Shown piece after piece: positions 335-7,407 of a DNA stretch of 7,407 bases (positions are counted from its first letter, which is position 1; each line of letters starts with the position of its first letter). The notes beneath the pieces were generated by a model. It saw only the letters and a list, made by a program, of their open reading frames with translations, ran no database searches and had not been told where the DNA came from. The DNA lies in contig JASIBJ010000562.1 in NCBI GenBank assembly GCA_030045215.1, positions 1 through 7,407 of the forward strand, read 5' to 3'. The position numbers and the translations under genes are program-made. This DNA comes from Streptosporangiaceae bacterium. Lineage in GTDB: Bacteria; Actinomycetota; Actinomycetes; Streptosporangiales; Streptosporangiaceae.

Positions 335-338
<4 letters not shown>
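1..338 (-). CDS. dgt: dGTPase-family HD phosphohydrolase, N-terminal part (runs off left edge)
   Basis: The 112 complete codons read here match the N-terminus of deoxyguanosinetriphosphate triphosphohydrolase-like proteins. These cytoplasmic enzymes hydrolyse dNTPs to the deoxynucleoside and triphosphate. Visible hallmarks are [20 protein letters not shown] (residues 36-55), [10 protein letters not shown] (65-74, with metal-ligand candidate H71), and [14 protein letters not shown] (99-112), which contains the HD pair H100/D101 and H109. The C-terminal part, including the last metal-binding Asp, lies outside the window. The start is GTG at 338, which overlaps the ppdK stop codon in GTGA. A GGAGG at 355-351 lies 12 nt upstream, rather far, so translation probably depends partly on coupling to ppdK. 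The same strand and the overlap make it the second gene of a ppdK operon. The family is clear; the substrate preference of actinobacterial members is less certain than the name suggests. Confidence 0.93.
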
Positions 339-3022
<2,684 letters not shown>

Positions 3023-3031
3023 TGCTCTGCA

Positions 3032-3036
3032 CTCCT
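3032..3036 (-). promoter_or_regulatory. Ribosome binding site of ppdK
   Basis: On the minus strand AGGAG lies 9 nt before the GTG at 3022. It supports GTG as the ppdK start, which also gives the conserved MPKLVYDF N-terminus. Confidence 0.6.
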
Positions 3037-3125
3037 GCCTGGCCAGCCCGGCTCTCGACCTGCACGGTGCCTGGGCGGCTCTCTGATCGCTCCGCTGTGT
3101 TGCGGCCTGTCGGCCCTTATCACCG

Positions 3126-3131
3126 AGCCTA
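3126..3131 (-). promoter_or_regulatory. Possible -10 box of the ppdK promoter
   Basis: The minus strand reads TAGGCT here, which fits the TANNNT -10 pattern common in actinobacterial housekeeping promoters. A purine start about 5-6 nt downstream (3120-3121) would give a leader of roughly 100 nt. No good TTGACN -35 box stands at the expected distance (around 3149-3154), where a hairpin-like repeat lies instead. This is an inference from a short motif only. Confidence 0.3.
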
Positions 3132-3146
3132 GCGACCCGTCCATAT

Positions 3147-3166
3147 CGGTGGCGCGCCGGTCACCG
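3147..3166. repeat. Imperfect inverted repeat / possible operator
   Basis: CGGTGGC (3147-3153) can pair with GGTCACCG-type sequence at 3160-3166: five Watson-Crick pairs, one G-T pair and one further C-G pair, around a 6-nt loop. It contains an 8-bp palindrome GGCGCGCC (3151-3158) and overlaps the odd palindrome CCGGTCACCGG (3157-3167). It sits where the -35 region of the proposed ppdK promoter would be, as an operator might. Short GC-rich palindromes occur by chance in such DNA, so function is unproven. Confidence 0.35.
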
Positions 3167-3283
3167 GACGTGAAATGAACAAACCGGAAACCCAAAATCG
3201 GTCCGCGCCGGCTGCCCGCCAGCCAGGACGAGAATTTCTGGGTCAGGCGAGCAGCAGATCGGGCTGATGTTCGTGTCTGTGTC

Positions 3284-3853
3284 ATGGAACTAGACGGCAC
3301 GGCGCTCACCGGGCAGCGCGACTGGCCGGGAGGCAGCGACCGCTCCCGCGCCGGGAGCGGAGGGGACGAGCGCGCCAAGGCGGTCACTGCCCTGTTCGCC
3401 GAGAATGCTCTCGGTCTTATCCGGCTGGCCCACATCATGCTCGGGAACGCGGCCGTCGCCGAGGACATCGTGCAGGACGCGTTCTGCGGCCTGTACCGGC
3501 GCTGGCCGCAACTCAGTGACCAGTCACGGGCACTCGGTTACGTAAGGTCGTCCGTGCTGAACGGATGCCGGTCGGCGATGCGGCTGCGTCCCACGGTCGA
3601 GCTCGTGGAGGGACATCAGCCGCCTGCCGCCTCGGCCGAAACGGCGCTGCTAGCCGCTGAGGAAGGCCGCGAGGTACTCCGGGCGCTGCGCCGGTTGCCC
3701 GACCGGCAGCGCGAGGTGCTGACGCTGCGGTACTACCTCGACCTGCCCGACGACCAGATCGCCGCCGCGATGGGCATCGGACCTGGCACGGTCCGGTCCG
3801 CTGCCCACCGGGCGCTCGCCGCGCTGCGCAAGGCACTCAAGGAGACGTCATGA
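3284..3853 (+). CDS. ECF-type RNA polymerase sigma factor (SigE-like), first module
   Basis: This is a 189-residue sigma factor of the extracytoplasmic-function class, with only regions 2 and 4. It would direct RNA polymerase to a small regulon. Sigma2 covers about 33-100 and includes AEDIVQDAFCGLYRRWPQL (59-77), the core-binding and -10-recognition part. A linker of about 30 residues follows. Sigma4 (about 130-187) has LPDRQREVLTLRYY (138-151) and a helix-turn-helix through GIGPGTVRSAAHRALAAL. Region 3 is absent, as expected. The ATG at 3284 has no Shine-Dalgarno and no plausible in-frame alternative before sigma2, so the transcript may be leaderless. The stop overlaps the ATG of the next gene (ATGA), tying it to the membrane protein as probable regulator. 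In the sigma4 stretch it matches the second sigma factor (5142-5675) at 29 of 48 positions by eye. The target promoter is unknown. Confidence 0.92.
   Translation: MELDGTALTGQRDWPGGSDRSRAGSGGDERAKAVTALFAENALGLIRLAHIMLGNAAVAEDIVQDAFCGLYRRWPQLSDQSRALGYVRSSVLNGCRSAMRLRPTVELVEGHQPPAASAETALLAAEEGREVLRALRRLPDRQREVLTLRYYLDLPDDQIAAAMGIGPGTVRSAAHRALAALRKALKETS
3839..3844 (+). promoter_or_regulatory. Ribosome binding site of the first membrane propeller gene
   Basis: AAGGAG lies 5 nt before the ATG at 3850, inside the last codons of the sigma gene. This strong, well-spaced site fixes the start and shows that the partner can be translated efficiently despite the overlap. Confidence 0.75.
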
Positions 3854-5055
3854 ACCTTACCGAAGACCGGCTGCGGGCAGTGCTCAGGAAGGCCGGGGAC
3901 GAGATCGTGCCGGAGCGGGTCCGGCCGCTGGATCTTCGGCCGCAAGGCGCCCTCCGGCTCGCGGCCCGCAACCCGACCGAGCGCTGGCGTCGCAGCCGCT
4001 GGCTCCAGGCCCTGGCCGCAGCCACGGCCGTGGCGGCGGTCGCGATCGCCGCGACCGCGATCGCGACCGCACCGACCCGGCGCGGCGGTGCTCCCAGCTC
4101 AGTCGCTCCCGCCACAGTGGCCCGCAACCGCAGCGTGCCTCCGTATTACGTCGCCATCATGGCCCCTCCCAAGGGCGCGTTCGTCACCACAATCCGGGAC
4201 ACGACGACCGGTGCCGTGCTGACTACGGTGCGGCCACCCAGGGGCGAGTCGTTCTTCGACGCCGTGCCGGGGGCCGACGACACATTCGTGCTCGAAGCCA
4301 ACCAGCGCACAGATCGCCTTGGGCTATTTCTGCTGCGGTTCAATCCGGCCGACCGCGGCACCACGCTGACCAGGCTGCCCATCCCGGCGACGCTCAGCAC
4401 CGGCGGGCTGGCCATGTCGCCGGGCGGCACCGAGCTCGCCGTGGCCAGCGAAGGGTTCCCCGGCGGGCCGTCGAATCTGCAGATCTACACCTTGTCAGGA
4501 CAGCTGATCCGGCAGTGGCAGGGCCCCGGATTGATCTGCCAAGCAGGCGGGACCGCGGTCGAGGACGAGCTGGATTGCGTGTCCTGGACCACGGCCGGGT
4601 ACCTGGCGTTCGGCTGGACCAGCAACGGCACGAACGTCGCCGCGGATGGCATCAGGCTAATCCGGCCGACGGTTTCCAGCGGCAGCTTGCTCGGCGCTAG
4701 CCGCCTCGCCGTGCCCCTCAAGATGGCCGACATTTCGAGCTTCGTCGTGTCCGGTGACGGCACGACAATCGCCGCCGACGTCCTGCTCCATCCCCGCTCC
4801 GGAGGGTTCTACAGCGCGTTCGAGGAGTTCTCTGCGGCCACCGGCAAGATGACCCGACAGTACTGGCCAACGCGCCGGGATGTGGCCGGGACGGGGACCG
4901 TGTTCTGGAGCAACCGGACGGGCAGCGAGCTGGTCGTTGACGCTCAGTTCCCGCGGACCAGCCCGCACCCGCGGTGGTCGCTCGGCATCCTTGCTTCGGG
5001 CAAGTTCACCCCGCTGCCGACGCAAGCGAGAGGCGTGCTAGCCATCACGTTCTAG
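3850..5055 (+). CDS. Membrane-anchored propeller-like protein, putative regulator of the upstream sigma factor
   Basis: I do not recognise a named family for this 401-residue protein. Visible layout: a charged cytoplasmic N-terminus of about 50 residues starting LTEDRLRAVLRKAGDEIVPE; an Arg-rich juxtamembrane segment (RWRRSRW, 45-51); one Ala/Val-rich membrane helix (about 52-74); then an exterior domain of about 325 residues rich in short beta segments. Blade-like pieces such as MSPGGTELAVAS (189-200) and VSGDGTTIAADV (300-311) suggest a WD40/PD40-type beta-propeller. Exterior cysteines C230 and C243 could form a disulfide. The start at 3850 overlaps the sigma stop and has a strong AAGGAG. 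A one-helix protein encoded directly behind an ECF sigma gene is typically its anti-sigma or sensor, but no H-x3-C-x2-C zinc motif is present, so this role is inferred from context. Its paralog is at 5659-6876. Confidence 0.85.
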   Translation: MNLTEDRLRAVLRKAGDEIVPERVRPLDLRPQGALRLAARNPTERWRRSRWLQALAAATAVAAVAIAATAIATAPTRRGGAPSSVAPATVARNRSVPPYYVAIMAPPKGAFVTTIRDTTTGAVLTTVRPPRGESFFDAVPGADDTFVLEANQRTDRLGLFLLRFNPADRGTTLTRLPIPATLSTGGLAMSPGGTELAVASEGFPGGPSNLQIYTLSGQLIRQWQGPGLICQAGGTAVEDELDCVSWTTAGYLAFGWTSNGTNVAADGIRLIRPTVSSGSLLGASRLAVPLKMADISSFVVSGDGTTIAADVLLHPRSGGFYSAFEEFSAATGKMTRQYWPTRRDVAGTGTVFWSNRTGSELVVDAQFPRTSPHPRWSLGILASGKFTPLPTQARGVLAITF

Positions 5056-5081
5056 CCGGGCCCTCAGAAACAGGTCAGCGT

Positions 5082-5111
5082 CACGCAGCATAAGCAGCCG
5101 CTCGGTGCGTG
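5082..5111. repeat. Short inverted repeat upstream of the second sigma gene
   Basis: CACGCA (5082-5087) and TGCGTG (5106-5111) form a perfect 6-bp inverted repeat with an 18-nt spacer, 30 bp before the chosen start at 5142. It could be an operator or a weak hairpin. It lies in the only non-coding gap (5056-5141, 86 bp) between the two sigma modules, and that gap contains no convincing terminator. A repeat this short could be chance. Confidence 0.25.
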
Positions 5112-5132
5112 TTTACTGCAGAGACGACCGTC

Positions 5133-5137
5133 GGAGG
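5133..5137 (+). promoter_or_regulatory. Ribosome binding site deciding the second sigma start
   Basis: GGAGG lies 4 nt before the ATG at 5142. The alternative in-frame GTG at 5109 has no purine-rich site ahead of it. With the ATG, the protein begins MTFEEFARARLPAVLAF, which looks like a normal SigE-family N-terminus. Confidence 0.6.
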
Positions 5138-5141
5138 CGGC

Positions 5142-5675
5142 ATGACCTTTGAGGAGTTCGCCCGTGCCCGGCTGCCCGCCGTGCTCGCCTTCGCCACTGT
5201 CCTGGCCGGCCAGCGGGCCACCGCCGAGGACCTGGCCCAGGAGGTCTTGATCCGGGCCCACGCCCGGTGGGACATGATTGGTCAGCTGGACCGGCCGGAG
5301 ATGTACGTCCGGAAAATGATCCTCAATGAGTTCCTGTCCTGGCGGCGCCGATCCTGGCGGCTGATCCCGTCCGGCCATAACGAGCTCACCACCGGCAGTG
5401 CGCCCGACCACGCGACCGGATACGCCGAGCACGAGGCCATGCTGGCCGAGATCGCTAAGCTGCCGCGCCGGCAGCGGGCCGTACTCGTCCTGCGCTACTA
5501 CGAGGACCGCAGTGACGCCGAGATCGCCGAACTCCTCGGCTGCGCGCCGGGCAGCGTGCGCGGGTACGCGTCCAGGGCCCTCGCGGCCCTGCGGATCGAG
5601 CTACGACCTCAGCAGGCTGACGGACCGACGATCGCGACTTACCAGCTGGGGGATGCCGATGCGTACCGAGGATGA
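5142..5675 (+). CDS. ECF-type RNA polymerase sigma factor (SigE family), second module
   Basis: This 177-residue ECF sigma factor resembles the actinobacterial SigE family: it starts with FEEFARARLPAVLAFATVLA directly in sigma2. Sigma2 (about 3-70) includes TAEDLAQEVLIRAHARW (27-43) and YVRKMILNEFLSWRRR (55-70). Sigma4 (about 100-154) includes LPRRQRAVLVLRYYEDRSDA (107-126) and the helix-turn-helix AEIAELLGCAPGSVRGYASR (126-145). A polar tail of about 23 residues (155-177) extends beyond sigma4; the first module's sigma has almost none. The last codons overlap the next gene by 17 nt, so sigma and membrane partner are co-transcribed. ATG 5142 is preferred over GTG 5109 because of its Shine-Dalgarno; the longer form would add 11 residues. 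The downstream regulon cannot be read from the sequence. Confidence 0.93.
   Translation: MTFEEFARARLPAVLAFATVLAGQRATAEDLAQEVLIRAHARWDMIGQLDRPEMYVRKMILNEFLSWRRRSWRLIPSGHNELTTGSAPDHATGYAEHEAMLAEIAKLPRRQRAVLVLRYYEDRSDAEIAELLGCAPGSVRGYASRALAALRIELRPQQADGPTIATYQLGDADAYRG
5648..5653 (+). promoter_or_regulatory. Ribosome binding site of the second membrane propeller gene
   Basis: GGGGGA lies 5 nt before the ATG at 5659, within the 3' end of the sigma gene. It favours 5659 over the in-frame ATG at 5653, which would have this G run directly against it. Confidence 0.5.
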
Positions 5676-6876
5676 CATCCGCGCGGCCTTCCGGGTCCTG
5701 GCCGCTTCCGCTCCGGATCCTGAGAGCGTCCTGGCGGGTGTTGCCCAGGCCGAGGCACGCCGCGGCGATCACTCGGCACTGCAGGCAGTCACGCCGCCCA
5801 CGCGGCCAGCCCGATCCCTGCCTGGCCGCCGAGCCTGGACACGGCGTCTCGCACCGCCGATCGCGGCGGCCGTTGCGGTGCTAGCGATCATCGGCCTGGC
5901 GGTAGCACTCGCGGCAGGCGGCACGCGCCGGCTCTCTCCTGGTCCGGCACAGGGCGCCGGCAGCCCGGCGGGCCTGCCGCGGTACTACGTTGCCTACCAG
6001 GTCGGTGCGCAGCGGGCCGTCATTGGTGACCTGGCCACCGGCGCCATGATCACGGTCAACCTACCCAGGCTTTACGTGGACGGCGCCGCGGTCACGGCCG
6101 GCGACCGGGCGTTCGTTTTCCAGACCTCCCGCCAGAGCGAGCCTTACCACCGTTACTACTACCTGGCGCGTCTCAGCGCCGCAAAGCGCACGGTGAGCCT
6201 CAGTCGGCTGCCCATCACCGCCACGGGCCAATTGGTGTCCTTTGGGCTCTCCCCCGCCGGAACCGCGCTGGCCGTCGCCTTCATGGACGTCTCGCCCCCC
6301 ACCCGGAGAGTGCCTGGGCGAGTGCTCTCCGGCGTCAACATATATTCACTCAACGGGACGCTTCTCAGGGCCTGGCGGACGCGCGGATATGTCTGTGACC
6401 CAGGTCCGATGACCTGGGCCCAGAACGGCCTGCTGATGATCGGGGTGCGTTTCCAGCAGGACCACTATGGCGAGTGCGTCCTGAACGTCAGCGCTCCAGG
6501 TAGCAGCCTGCTGGGCGCGATCAGGCTGGTTGTACCGAGACTCGGTCCCGGATGGGTCGTGCAGACGGCCTCCATGGCTGGGAACGGCCAGACGATCGCG
6601 GCGACCGCGAACTCCGCCGCCCCAGGCGACAAATGGGAATTCGTGGTGTTCTCGGCGGTAACCGGCACCGTGCTGCGCCGATCCTGGCCCGACGACTCGG
6701 GATTTGACGAAGAAGTTCTGTGGGACAGCTATTCCGGCAGCCAGCAGATCGTGCAGGCGCCCGTGAGCGTCCGGGCGAAGCACCAGGTTTATCGGTACGG
6801 CGTACTGACGAGCGGAGAATTCGTTCCGTTCCGGCACTTCGAGAGTGAGTGGTTCTTGACGGAATTCGCGTTCTAA
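5659..6876 (+). CDS. Membrane-anchored propeller-like protein, paralog of the first, putative sigma regulator
   Basis: This 405-residue protein has the same plan as the product of 3850-5055. A cytoplasmic N-terminus of about 65 residues (opening MRTEDDIRAAFRVLAASAPD) ends in a basic stretch (RRAWTRR, 57-63). One hydrophobic helix follows (about 66-87, APPIAAAVAVLAIIGLAVAL), then an exterior beta-rich domain (about 105-405). Shared ordered motifs include YYVA (109-112), LSRLPITATG (181-190), LSPAGTALAVAF (197-208), VNIYSLNGTLLRAW (226-239), SLLGAIRLVVP (283-293), FSAVTGTVLRRSWP (331-344) and YGVLTSGEFVP (380-390). Exterior cysteines are C246 and C273. No zinc anti-sigma motif is seen. The start overlaps the sigma stop by 17 nt; the longer open frame reaching back to 5398 is only read-through inside the sigma gene. 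A role in controlling the neighbouring sigma factor is inferred from gene order, not from a known domain. Confidence 0.85.
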   Translation: MRTEDDIRAAFRVLAASAPDPESVLAGVAQAEARRGDHSALQAVTPPTRPARSLPGRRAWTRRLAPPIAAAVAVLAIIGLAVALAAGGTRRLSPGPAQGAGSPAGLPRYYVAYQVGAQRAVIGDLATGAMITVNLPRLYVDGAAVTAGDRAFVFQTSRQSEPYHRYYYLARLSAAKRTVSLSRLPITATGQLVSFGLSPAGTALAVAFMDVSPPTRRVPGRVLSGVNIYSLNGTLLRAWRTRGYVCDPGPMTWAQNGLLMIGVRFQQDHYGECVLNVSAPGSSLLGAIRLVVPRLGPGWVVQTASMAGNGQTIAATANSAAPGDKWEFVVFSAVTGTVLRRSWPDDSGFDEEVLWDSYSGSQQIVQAPVSVRAKHQVYRYGVLTSGEFVPFRHFESEWFLTEFAF

Positions 6877-6928
6877 CGGTCACGTCGGCGGGCCCTAGGG
6901 CGCTGCCCGGGCAAGCGCGCGGTGACCG
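6877..6928 (+). terminator. Possible terminator / palindrome cluster after the sigma block
   Basis: Directly after the TAA, CGGTCAC (6877-6883) pairs perfectly with GTGACCG (6922-6928). Inside this lie a perfect 10-bp palindrome GCCCTAGGGC (6892-6901) and GCCCGGGC (6905-6912). No T run follows, so a classical intrinsic terminator is not shown, although GC-rich stem-loops without a T tract are proposed to act in actinobacteria. It could equally be an operator for the next gene. Confidence 0.35.
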
Positions 6929-6937
6929 GGCCTGTGC

Positions 6938-6943
6938 CACACT
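6938..6943 (+). promoter_or_regulatory. Weak -10-like box of a possibly leaderless transcript
   Basis: CACACT ends 6 nt before the ATG at 6950, the spacing expected if transcription begins at the start codon itself. The box departs from TANNNT at its first base, and no -35 is visible. It is suggested mainly because the following gene has no Shine-Dalgarno. Confidence 0.2.
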
Positions 6944-6949
6944 CCAGCC

Positions 6950-7407
6950 ATGACCATGATTGCGGAGAGCGTGATCGGGCTGCTGCACCCGGGTGAGATG
7001 GGCGCGGCCGTGGGACAGTGCCTCACCAGCGCCGGGCACCAGGTGCTCTGGGCATCGGACGGCCGGGGCCCCGACACGGCTGCCAGGGCGGCGGCTGCCG
7101 GGCTGAGGGATATCCGGACGCCGCGGCAGATGGCCGCCGAGGCCTCGGTGATCATCTCGGTCTGCCCGCCGCACGCGGCCCTGGACGTCGCCTGGGCCGT
7201 GCACGGCTTCACCGGCCTGTACGTGGACGCGAACGCGATCTCGCCAGGCACGGCGCGGGAGGTGGCCAAACTGATCACCGACAGCGGCGGCCGCTACGTC
7301 GATGGCGGCATCATCGGCCCGCCGCCGAGGACGGCGGGCACGACCCGGCTCTACCTTTCTGGCCCGCAGGCGCTGGACATCCACGCGCTGTTCGCCGGTA
7401 CCCCGCT
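6950..7407 (+). CDS. NAD(P)-dependent oxidoreductase, 6-phosphogluconate/3-hydroxyisobutyrate dehydrogenase-like, N-terminal part
   Basis: The 152 complete codons present (open at the right edge) form a Rossmann-type NAD(P)-binding domain of the beta-hydroxyacid dehydrogenase superfamily. The nucleotide-binding turn is VIGLLHPGEMGAAV (8-21), matching the GxxxxGxMG pattern. Further family-like blocks are ASVIISVCPP (65-74), YVDANAISPGTA (91-102) and YVDGGIIGPPP (116-126) with RLYLSG (133-138). The DANAISP and GGIIGPPP pair resembles the subgroup that carries a DUF1932-type C-terminal domain, which would lie beyond the window. The substrate cannot be named. The start is ATG 6950 or the in-frame ATG 6956; neither has a Shine-Dalgarno. 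It follows the sigma block by 73 bp, across a palindrome-rich spacer, and is probably an independent gene. Confidence 0.85.
   Translation, partial: MTMIAESVIGLLHPGEMGAAVGQCLTSAGHQVLWASDGRGPDTAARAAAAGLRDIRTPRQMAAEASVIISVCPPHAALDVAWAVHGFTGLYVDANAISPGTAREVAKLITDSGGRYVDGGIIGPPPRTAGTTRLYLSGPQALDIHALFAGTP

What the first reader, a model, noticed from the sequence alone, without database searches (positions are those of the whole stretch)
3284..6876. Tandem duplicated sigma factor / membrane propeller modules
Two complete ECF sigma genes, each overlapping a one-helix protein of about 400 residues, stand head to tail. The sigma4 stretches match at 29 of 48 positions by eye, and the membrane proteins share at least seven motifs in the same order. 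This implies duplication of a whole two-gene signalling unit followed by strong divergence, perhaps to two signals or two regulons. The partner type (exterior propeller-like domain, no zinc anti-sigma domain) is not a standard anti-sigma factor.
Basis: partly seen in the sequence, partly recalled or inferred. Interest (0 to 1): 0.7.

Follow-up and report, generated by a model that had tools for sequence, protein, structure and literature searches.

The report
Paired sigma factors with swappable sensors
Two neighbouring gene pairs each encode a gene-switching sigma factor and a membrane protein that probably holds it inactive; the outer sensor parts look alike, but the sigma-gripping ends belong to two separate lineages and have been recombined with the sensors repeatedly.

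Summary
In detail: two SigE-family ECF sigma genes (3284-3853; 5142-5675), each overlapping a gene for a one-helix protein of about 400 residues; the first protein's ectodomain is a confident TolB-like beta-propeller. The reading as a duplicated two-gene unit does not hold. Sigma1 and sigma2 are about as alike as SigE paralogs in general and fall in different parts of the sigma tree; only the propellers are close kin.

The membrane proteins are modular: a cytosolic segment of about 40-65 residues, one helix, the propeller. On a tree of 52 propellers the segment type changes 12 times, at least 6 forced by well-supported branches. Three of three loci with the M2-type segment carry a sigma2-type sigma; none of 23 other pairs does. 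In 75 sigma/partner pairs sigma distance tracks the segment (rho 0.45) more than the ectodomain (0.14). In six chosen genomes 60 of 69 SigE sigmas precede such a membrane-protein gene.

Best reading: two separately autoregulated sigma/anti-sigma modules; the segment grips its sigma, the propeller is an exchangeable sensor. Binding, inhibition and signal are untested. New variant of a known kind.

The parts
3251..3274 (+). Candidate autoregulatory promoter of module 1: GCAGC-N16-CGT, 33 nt before the sigma1 start (nearly leaderless)
   Evidence: Same box at about the same position upstream of other sigma1-type loci; pattern in 13 of 26 propeller-paired sigmas, shuffle mean 0.67, max 4 of 300, none in four control windows
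3284..3853 (+). Sigma1: SigE-family ECF sigma factor, 189 aa
   Evidence: TIGR02983 147.4 bits, over cut-off; Pfam sigma70 r2, r4_2
3850..5055 (+). M1: single-pass membrane protein, 401 aa, putative anti-sigma factor with propeller sensor
   Evidence: ATGA overlap with sigma1; 98 proteins listed, one being itself; AlphaFold2 model pLDDT 84.6
3850..3975 (+). M1 N-terminal cytosolic segment (residues 1-42), type T1, helix 3-18; proposed sigma1-binding part
   Evidence: secondary structure; T1 profile 66.4 bits, T2 2.4; M1 is among the T1 seeds
3976..4065 (+). M1 transmembrane helix (residues 43-72)
   Evidence: basic residues before the helix favour N-in (read by eye)
4144..5049 (+). M1 beta-propeller ectodomain (residues 99-400)
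5085..5110 (+). Candidate autoregulatory promoter of module 2: GCAGCA-N15-TGCGT, 57 nt before the sigma2 start
   Evidence: Both boxes kept in the L019 and L023 sigma2-type loci while the spacer differs
5142..5675 (+). Sigma2: SigE-family ECF sigma factor, 177 aa from ATG 5142 (GTG 5109 is an alternative start)
   Evidence: TIGR02983 148.8 bits for the 188-aa reading; starred clade with the L019 and L023 sigmas
5659..6876 (+). M2: single-pass membrane protein, 405 aa, putative anti-sigma factor with propeller
   Evidence: Homologous to M1, E 1e-29; 7 proteins listed, one being itself; relatives start at the same MRTE
5659..5850 (+). M2 N-terminal cytosolic segment, type T2; two predicted helices; proposed sigma2-binding part
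   Evidence: T2 profile 78.1 bits, T1 9.7; M2 is among the T2 seeds; helices 176-188 and 193-208 of the chained model at block pLDDT 63-74
5851..5919 (+). M2 transmembrane helix (approximate)
   Evidence: Read by eye from the translation
5977..6873 (+). M2 ectodomain, homologous to the M1 propeller (start approximate)
   Evidence: Alignments; propeller tree; M2's ectodomain was not folded

Best explanation
Each pair is a one-input signalling module. The sigma factor is held at the membrane by the short N-terminal segment of its translationally coupled partner; the propeller outside the cell senses a ligand or envelope state; a change there, through regulated proteolysis or a conformational shift, frees the sigma, which then transcribes its own module and a regulon. 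The two modules are not a simple duplicate. Their sigma plus N-terminal segment come from two separate SigE-family lineages (T1 and T2), here side by side, while the part behind the segment has been exchanged between lineages repeatedly. Shown here: sigma identity, overlap, predicted propeller fold, segment/propeller shuffling, sigma-segment co-variation, a candidate promoter before each sigma. Inferred: binding, inhibition, topology, signal, release mechanism, regulon.
Confidence: 0.72

Rival explanations
1. Plain tandem duplication of a whole sigma/anti-sigma unit followed by strong divergence, with sigma2 and its segment evolving fast.
For: Head-to-tail order; M1 and M2 homologous from the helix region on; both sigmas in one NCBIfam family; similar promoter boxes.
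Against: Sigma similarity is near SigE background level; sigma tree and AU tests; segment types differ and swap repeatedly on the propeller tree.
Confidence: 0.15
2. The membrane protein is not an anti-sigma factor but a co-transcribed effector or sensor whose N-terminal segment does something else; the sigma is regulated by transcription alone, as listed for some ECF39 members.
For: No recognised anti-sigma domain over a cut-off; ECF39 SigE of S. coelicolor is listed under transcriptional regulation (PMC8999054, table passage seen).
Against: Overlapping genes in 26 of 26 propeller-family pairs; sigma-segment co-variation exceeding sigma-ectodomain; segment absent where the neighbour is GntR.
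Confidence: 0.13
3. The co-variation of segment and sigma is only physical linkage: recombination breakpoints fall at the alanine-rich helix region, and the segment has no specific contact with sigma.
For: In P0087 against P0084 the change lies just before the helix (sequences printed, read by eye), where GC-rich repetitive DNA could recombine; P0016 is closer to P0034 in its first 60 residues and to P0013 after them.
Against: Does not explain why 55 of 59 scored SigE partners keep a segment of 36-60 residues before the helix, or its absence beside GntR.
Confidence: 0.15

Closest known systems
CnrH/CnrY and EcfG/NepR (wrap-around, class II anti-sigma factors)
   Same: Short cytosolic segment, about two helices, sigma in the compact form (PMC4598750 passages)
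   Different: No sequence comparison of the segments was made; CnrY works with a separate periplasmic sensor CnrX and, as I recall, has no propeller; the complex is not shown here
RsiV/SigV of Bacillus subtilis
   Same: Single-pass anti-sigma factor whose ectodomain is itself the ligand receptor; release by site-1 and site-2 proteolysis (PMC5014341, passages)
   Different: Ectodomain DUF4163/DUF3298 instead of a propeller; no exchange of ectodomains described in what I saw
ECF57 sigma factors with WD40-like C-terminal extensions
   Same: An ECF sigma linked to a propeller-type domain (PMC8999054, passage)
   Different: There the repeats are fused to the sigma; here they are on a separate membrane protein
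SigE family (TIGR02983); ECF39 SigE of Streptomyces coelicolor
   Same: Sigma family membership over cut-off
   Different: S. coelicolor SigE is listed as transcriptionally regulated (PMC8999054); that it is the namesake of TIGR02983 is recalled
TolB
   Different: About 15% identity; TolB is a soluble periplasmic protein of the Tol-Pal system (recalled); no Tol-Pal genes seen in the window

Membership tests
SigE-family ECF sigma factor (TIGR02983) | Score over the curated cut-off of 141.55 bits | tested here: met
   147.4 and 148.8 bits
ECF sigma factor | Regions 2 and 4 | tested here: met
   Pfam PF04542 and PF08281 over cut-off in both; no region-3 model listed
Class I zinc anti-sigma (ASDI/ZASD) | HisX3CysX2Cys motif in the cytosolic part | tested here: not met
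   No cysteine in the N-terminal segments of M1 or M2 (translations); zinc-free class I domains exist (PMC7406223, passages), so this excludes only the zinc form
[quoted passage not shown]
   Two helices at block pLDDT 63-74 and a compact sigma; contacts not readable and no control fold of sigma alone
Anti-sigma factor in general | Binds and inhibits the cognate sigma | not testable with these tools
   Needs a binding or reporter assay
Anti-sigma factor in general | Gene beside and usually overlapping the sigma gene | tested here: met
   26 pairs, 22 with gap -4; 60 of 69 in the sigma-centred survey
NCBIfam NF052375 (anti-sigma factor) | Score over the curated cut-off of 100 bits | tested here: not met
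   M1 14.2 bits, M2 not listed; two of 57 surveyed partners match at E 1e-3 or better
TolB-like beta-propeller | Propeller fold | tested here: met
TolB-like beta-propeller | Pfam propeller model over cut-off in the window's proteins | tested here: not met
   No Pfam family for M1 or M2; PD40 reached 27.4 and 23.8 bits (cut-off 20.9) in homologs P0069 and P0084

The most novel reading that the evidence does not exclude
A plug-in sensor system: one lineage of actinobacteria carries up to about twenty SigE-family sigma factors per genome, each gripped by a short dedicated membrane-anchored segment, with ectodomains (propellers among them) exchanged between segments as interchangeable sensors. In a recurrent T1/T2 tandem (inferred for four other contigs) two sigma lineages share look-alike promoters (GCAGC...CGT), so two differently gripped sigmas may feed one another as a two-input circuit.
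Probability: 0.35. Interest if true: 0.75.

Novelty: new variant of a known kind. Interest (0 to 1): 0.55.

Why it matters
How a sigma factor tells its own anti-sigma from many paralogs in the same cell is a live question for ECF systems. Here nature seems to have run the swap experiment several times: one sensor family sits behind two different N-terminal segments, and in the three T2 loci with a known sigma the sigma goes with the segment. That points to a stretch of about 40-65 residues as the specificity determinant, gives natural chimeras for tests, and suggests a toolkit of orthogonal sigma/anti-sigma anchors. It also proposes a role for many membrane proteins of these genomes that match no curated family.

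Tried and rejected
A sigma-propeller fusion: L072 carries both in one 620-aa frame, but region 4 lies in another frame, so it is read as a frameshift, not a fusion. Segment typing by a text pattern missed variants and mislabelled rows (8 changes); profile typing replaced it (12 changes). The profiles were seeded with rows that they then typed. The tree of 90 propellers left out 30 of 120 rows; the 52 rows are one starred clade of it that holds M1 and M2. Alignments A5 and A6, meant to add partner rows to the chained model, misaligned the segments and were dropped; A7 holds sigma rows only. Sigma-70 promoters and terminators: none found in 3000-7000. Open gapped-word search upstream of 26 sigmas: nothing above shuffles. 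Plasmids: no M1 relative by tblastn. Class-wide search with P0084: 1 of 108 genomes, the nearest one itself; at most 15 candidates per genome were scored in the rows shown. The scan of named genomes gave nothing for alignment A2 and one Streptosporangiales MAG for P0084. Papers: searches listed none whose title or abstract start told of a propeller-bearing anti-sigma factor; I read listings, and passages of five papers. Three ECF papers (Casas-Pastor 2021, Huang 2015, Pinto 2020) are not held, so novelty against them is untested. The six surveyed genomes were picked, four of them because they hold the propeller family. Nine of 69 surveyed sigmas were left out of the Mantel test because the downstream frame had no predicted helix, and L182 because no helix was found within the limit; L069, L026, L061, L071 and L077 were dropped from the added pairs. 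57 of the 69 downstream frames were scanned against Pfam and NCBIfam; nine without a helix and three cut by contig ends were left out. L069 was left out of the AU set, and L120, whose partner also matches the propeller profile, was never put into it.
Full report
What is there. The window holds, on the plus strand, sigma1 (3284-3853), M1 (3850-5055), sigma2 (5142-5675; GTG 5109 is an alternative start) and M2 (5659-6876; ATG 5653 is an alternative start). Both sigmas pass the NCBIfam SigE-family cut-off. M1 and M2 have no Pfam match at E 1 or better and no NCBIfam match over a cut-off; M1 has two weak ones, one to an anti-sigma model (14.2 bits, cut-off 100). Flanks are ordinary: pyruvate phosphate dikinase (335-3022, minus), part of a dGTPase-like gene (minus, window start), and an NAD-binding dehydrogenase-like fragment (6950 on, plus).

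Is it more than chance. M1 and M2 align over 337 columns at 32%, E 1e-29, so they are homologs. The sigma similarity is real but carries little news: 38% by global alignment, 27 of 48 in region 4. Against 69 SigE sigmas of six other genomes the median best ungapped region-4 count is 25 (sigma1) and 24 (sigma2); 21 and 15 of 69 reach 27; 51 align better to sigma2 than sigma1 does, and 23 better to sigma1 than sigma2 does.

Kin and context. Protein queries found relatives in genomes of one family only: 9 of 60 relatives of the nearest genome G001 with M1 (23 of the 60 lie outside the family and gave none), 15 of 61 family genomes with P0084, 8 of 110 with P0026, and 1 of 108 class-wide, G001 itself, with few candidates scored per genome. 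One named record, a Streptosporangiales MAG, holds a 30% relative. In 34 stretches read and the window, 26 sigma/partner pairs were assembled, the window's two included; all overlap, 22 by 4 nt. A 27th pair, L072, has a frameshifted sigma. Propeller homologs without a SigE sigma: a third copy in L022, L029, L032, L033, L068, L070 and two in L078; L075 is doubtful, its frame carrying a sigma region 2; others are cut off at contig ends and cannot be judged.

General pattern. TIGR02983 matches at E 1e-3 number 94, 105, 36, 107, 25 and 53 in G001, G009, G037, G069, G030 and G062, but that level also rings in 8 of 14 control genomes, none over the cut-off; over the cut-off they are 23, 20, 5, 15, 2 and 4, together 69 (my count from its list). 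All 69 were taken with their downstream DNA, and the longest frame starting between 40 nt before and 300 nt after the sigma stop was taken as the next gene. In 59 it has a predicted helix starting at residue 37-107, in 55 of them at 37-61; in L182 it starts at 117; the other nine have none. Two (L119, L143) show further helix-like stretches. The commonest gaps are -4 and -8 nt. Ectodomains differ: 8 of 69 match the M family across the propeller. Of 57 partners scanned, at least 38 have no Pfam match at E 1e-3; single members hit PASTA, YceG, lactonase-type and other propeller models, three hit DUF5074 (NCBIfam). So the architecture is ordinary for this sigma family in these genomes, and the propeller is one sensor among several.

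Modularity. N-terminal segments of the propeller family fall into two types by profile score, T1 (M1-like) and T2 (M2-like), with few rows between. On a maximum-likelihood tree of 52 propellers the type changes 12 times, at least 6 forced by starred branches, and a single T2 clade is rejected (p-AU 7.3e-7). P0087 and P0084 lie in one starred clade of three with short branches but have different segments, the change lying just before the helix (by eye). P0103 and P0104 have M2-type propellers with a segment that scores low on both profiles.

Which sigma goes with which segment. DNA is at hand for three T2 loci: the window's second module, L019 and L023. All three have sigma2-type sigmas (75% and 72% identity for L019 and L023), while their propellers lie in three separate starred parts of the propeller tree. 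In the other 23 pairs the sigma is closer to sigma1, L069 and L025 being near ties; 19 of these are T1 by profile, L069 scores low on both, and three partners were too short to type. Across 75 pairs of all kinds sigma distance correlates with segment distance (Mantel rho 0.453; 0 of 499 permutations reached it, maximum 0.10) more than with ectodomain distance (0.136); partial values 0.443 and 0.088. The segment is also next to the sigma gene, so linkage cannot be separated from binding with these data.

Sigma tree. In a quick tree of 89 sigmas sigma1 sits in a starred set of 31 with 21 of the propeller-family pairs; sigma2 with L019 and L023 forms a starred clade outside it. Holding the propeller-paired sigmas together is rejected (24 rows, p-AU 1.5e-8; 26 rows after adding L155 and L173, 0.0024). 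The sigma2 branch is long and its nearest kin unresolved.

Tandem order. Four pairs of homologs share one contig length and so probably one contig: P0007/P0026, P0008/P0030, P0023/P0037, P0015/P0102; each is one T1 and one T2. G037:C706 has two T1-like modules head to tail, and L019 and L023 hold a single module in the DNA read.

Promoters. GCA[AG]C-N14-18-CGT lies within -75 to +15 of the start in 13 of 26 propeller-paired sigmas (shuffle mean 0.67, maximum 4 of 300; none in four control windows) and in 7 of 64 other sigmas (mean 1.09, maximum 5; 0, 3, 0 and 2 in the control windows). Eight of those printed sit at exactly -33, the window's sigma1 among them. In the window the matches lie 33 nt before sigma1 (spacer 16) and 57 nt before sigma2 (spacer 18). 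The pattern was found after several others had been tried and was then relaxed. That it is an ECF promoter for autoregulation is inference. The two promoters look alike, so cross-activation is possible.

Complex. Sigma2 and the M2 segment, read as one chain, gave pLDDT 81.6 and pTM 0.64, the segment's two helices at block pLDDT 63-74. The sigma is compact and nearest to RpoE bound by NepR and SigW bound by RsiW (RsiW is class I but wraps around; PMC7406223), then CnrH bound by CnrY; SigG1 and SigJ without a partner match too. This fits the proposed mechanism without testing it. That CnrY embraces CnrH with two helices, and that the PhyR/NepR complex superimposes on it, is from PMC4598750 (passages).

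Verdict. Two non-equivalent sigma/anti-sigma-like modules in tandem, with exchangeable propeller sensors. The partner is most likely an anti-sigma factor, working perhaps like CnrY inside the cell and like RsiV outside it (receptor in the ectodomain; PMC5014341, passages). Signal and regulon are unknown.

Noticed in passing
L068:4666-6485 and L070:5813-7788: Propeller membrane proteins of the same family overlap or abut a GntR-family regulator gene instead of a sigma gene and, by eye, lack the sigma-type N-terminal segment; a possible membrane sensor for another regulator class.
   Followed up: partly
G001, G009, G069: Many SigE-family sigmas per genome (23, 20 and 15 over the cut-off; 94-107 matches at E 1e-3, which include other sigmas), some in tandem, such as three in 4.2 kb on G009:C376.
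   Followed up: partly
L117, L140, L181: A SigE sigma in three genomes is followed, 66-155 nt on, by a long frame (507-575 aa, one cut by a contig end) without a predicted helix, alike in its first residues; not identified.
   Followed up: no
L022:569-1735: A third propeller copy in a tandem array with a degenerate N-terminal segment and no sigma gene of its own; by eye its C-terminal part is nearly the same as its neighbour's, which suggests recent gene conversion.
   Followed up: no
window 7098, minus strand: A third match to the promoter pattern, inside the dehydrogenase-like reading frame; about 0.7 expected by chance in the window.
   Followed up: no
L032:3458-5499: A propeller homolog with a different N-terminal domain and no membrane helix by eye lies behind a phage-integrase-family gene.
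   Followed up: no
partners: Single surveyed SigE partners match PASTA or YceG-like models, hinting that some of these modules watch the cell wall.
   Followed up: no
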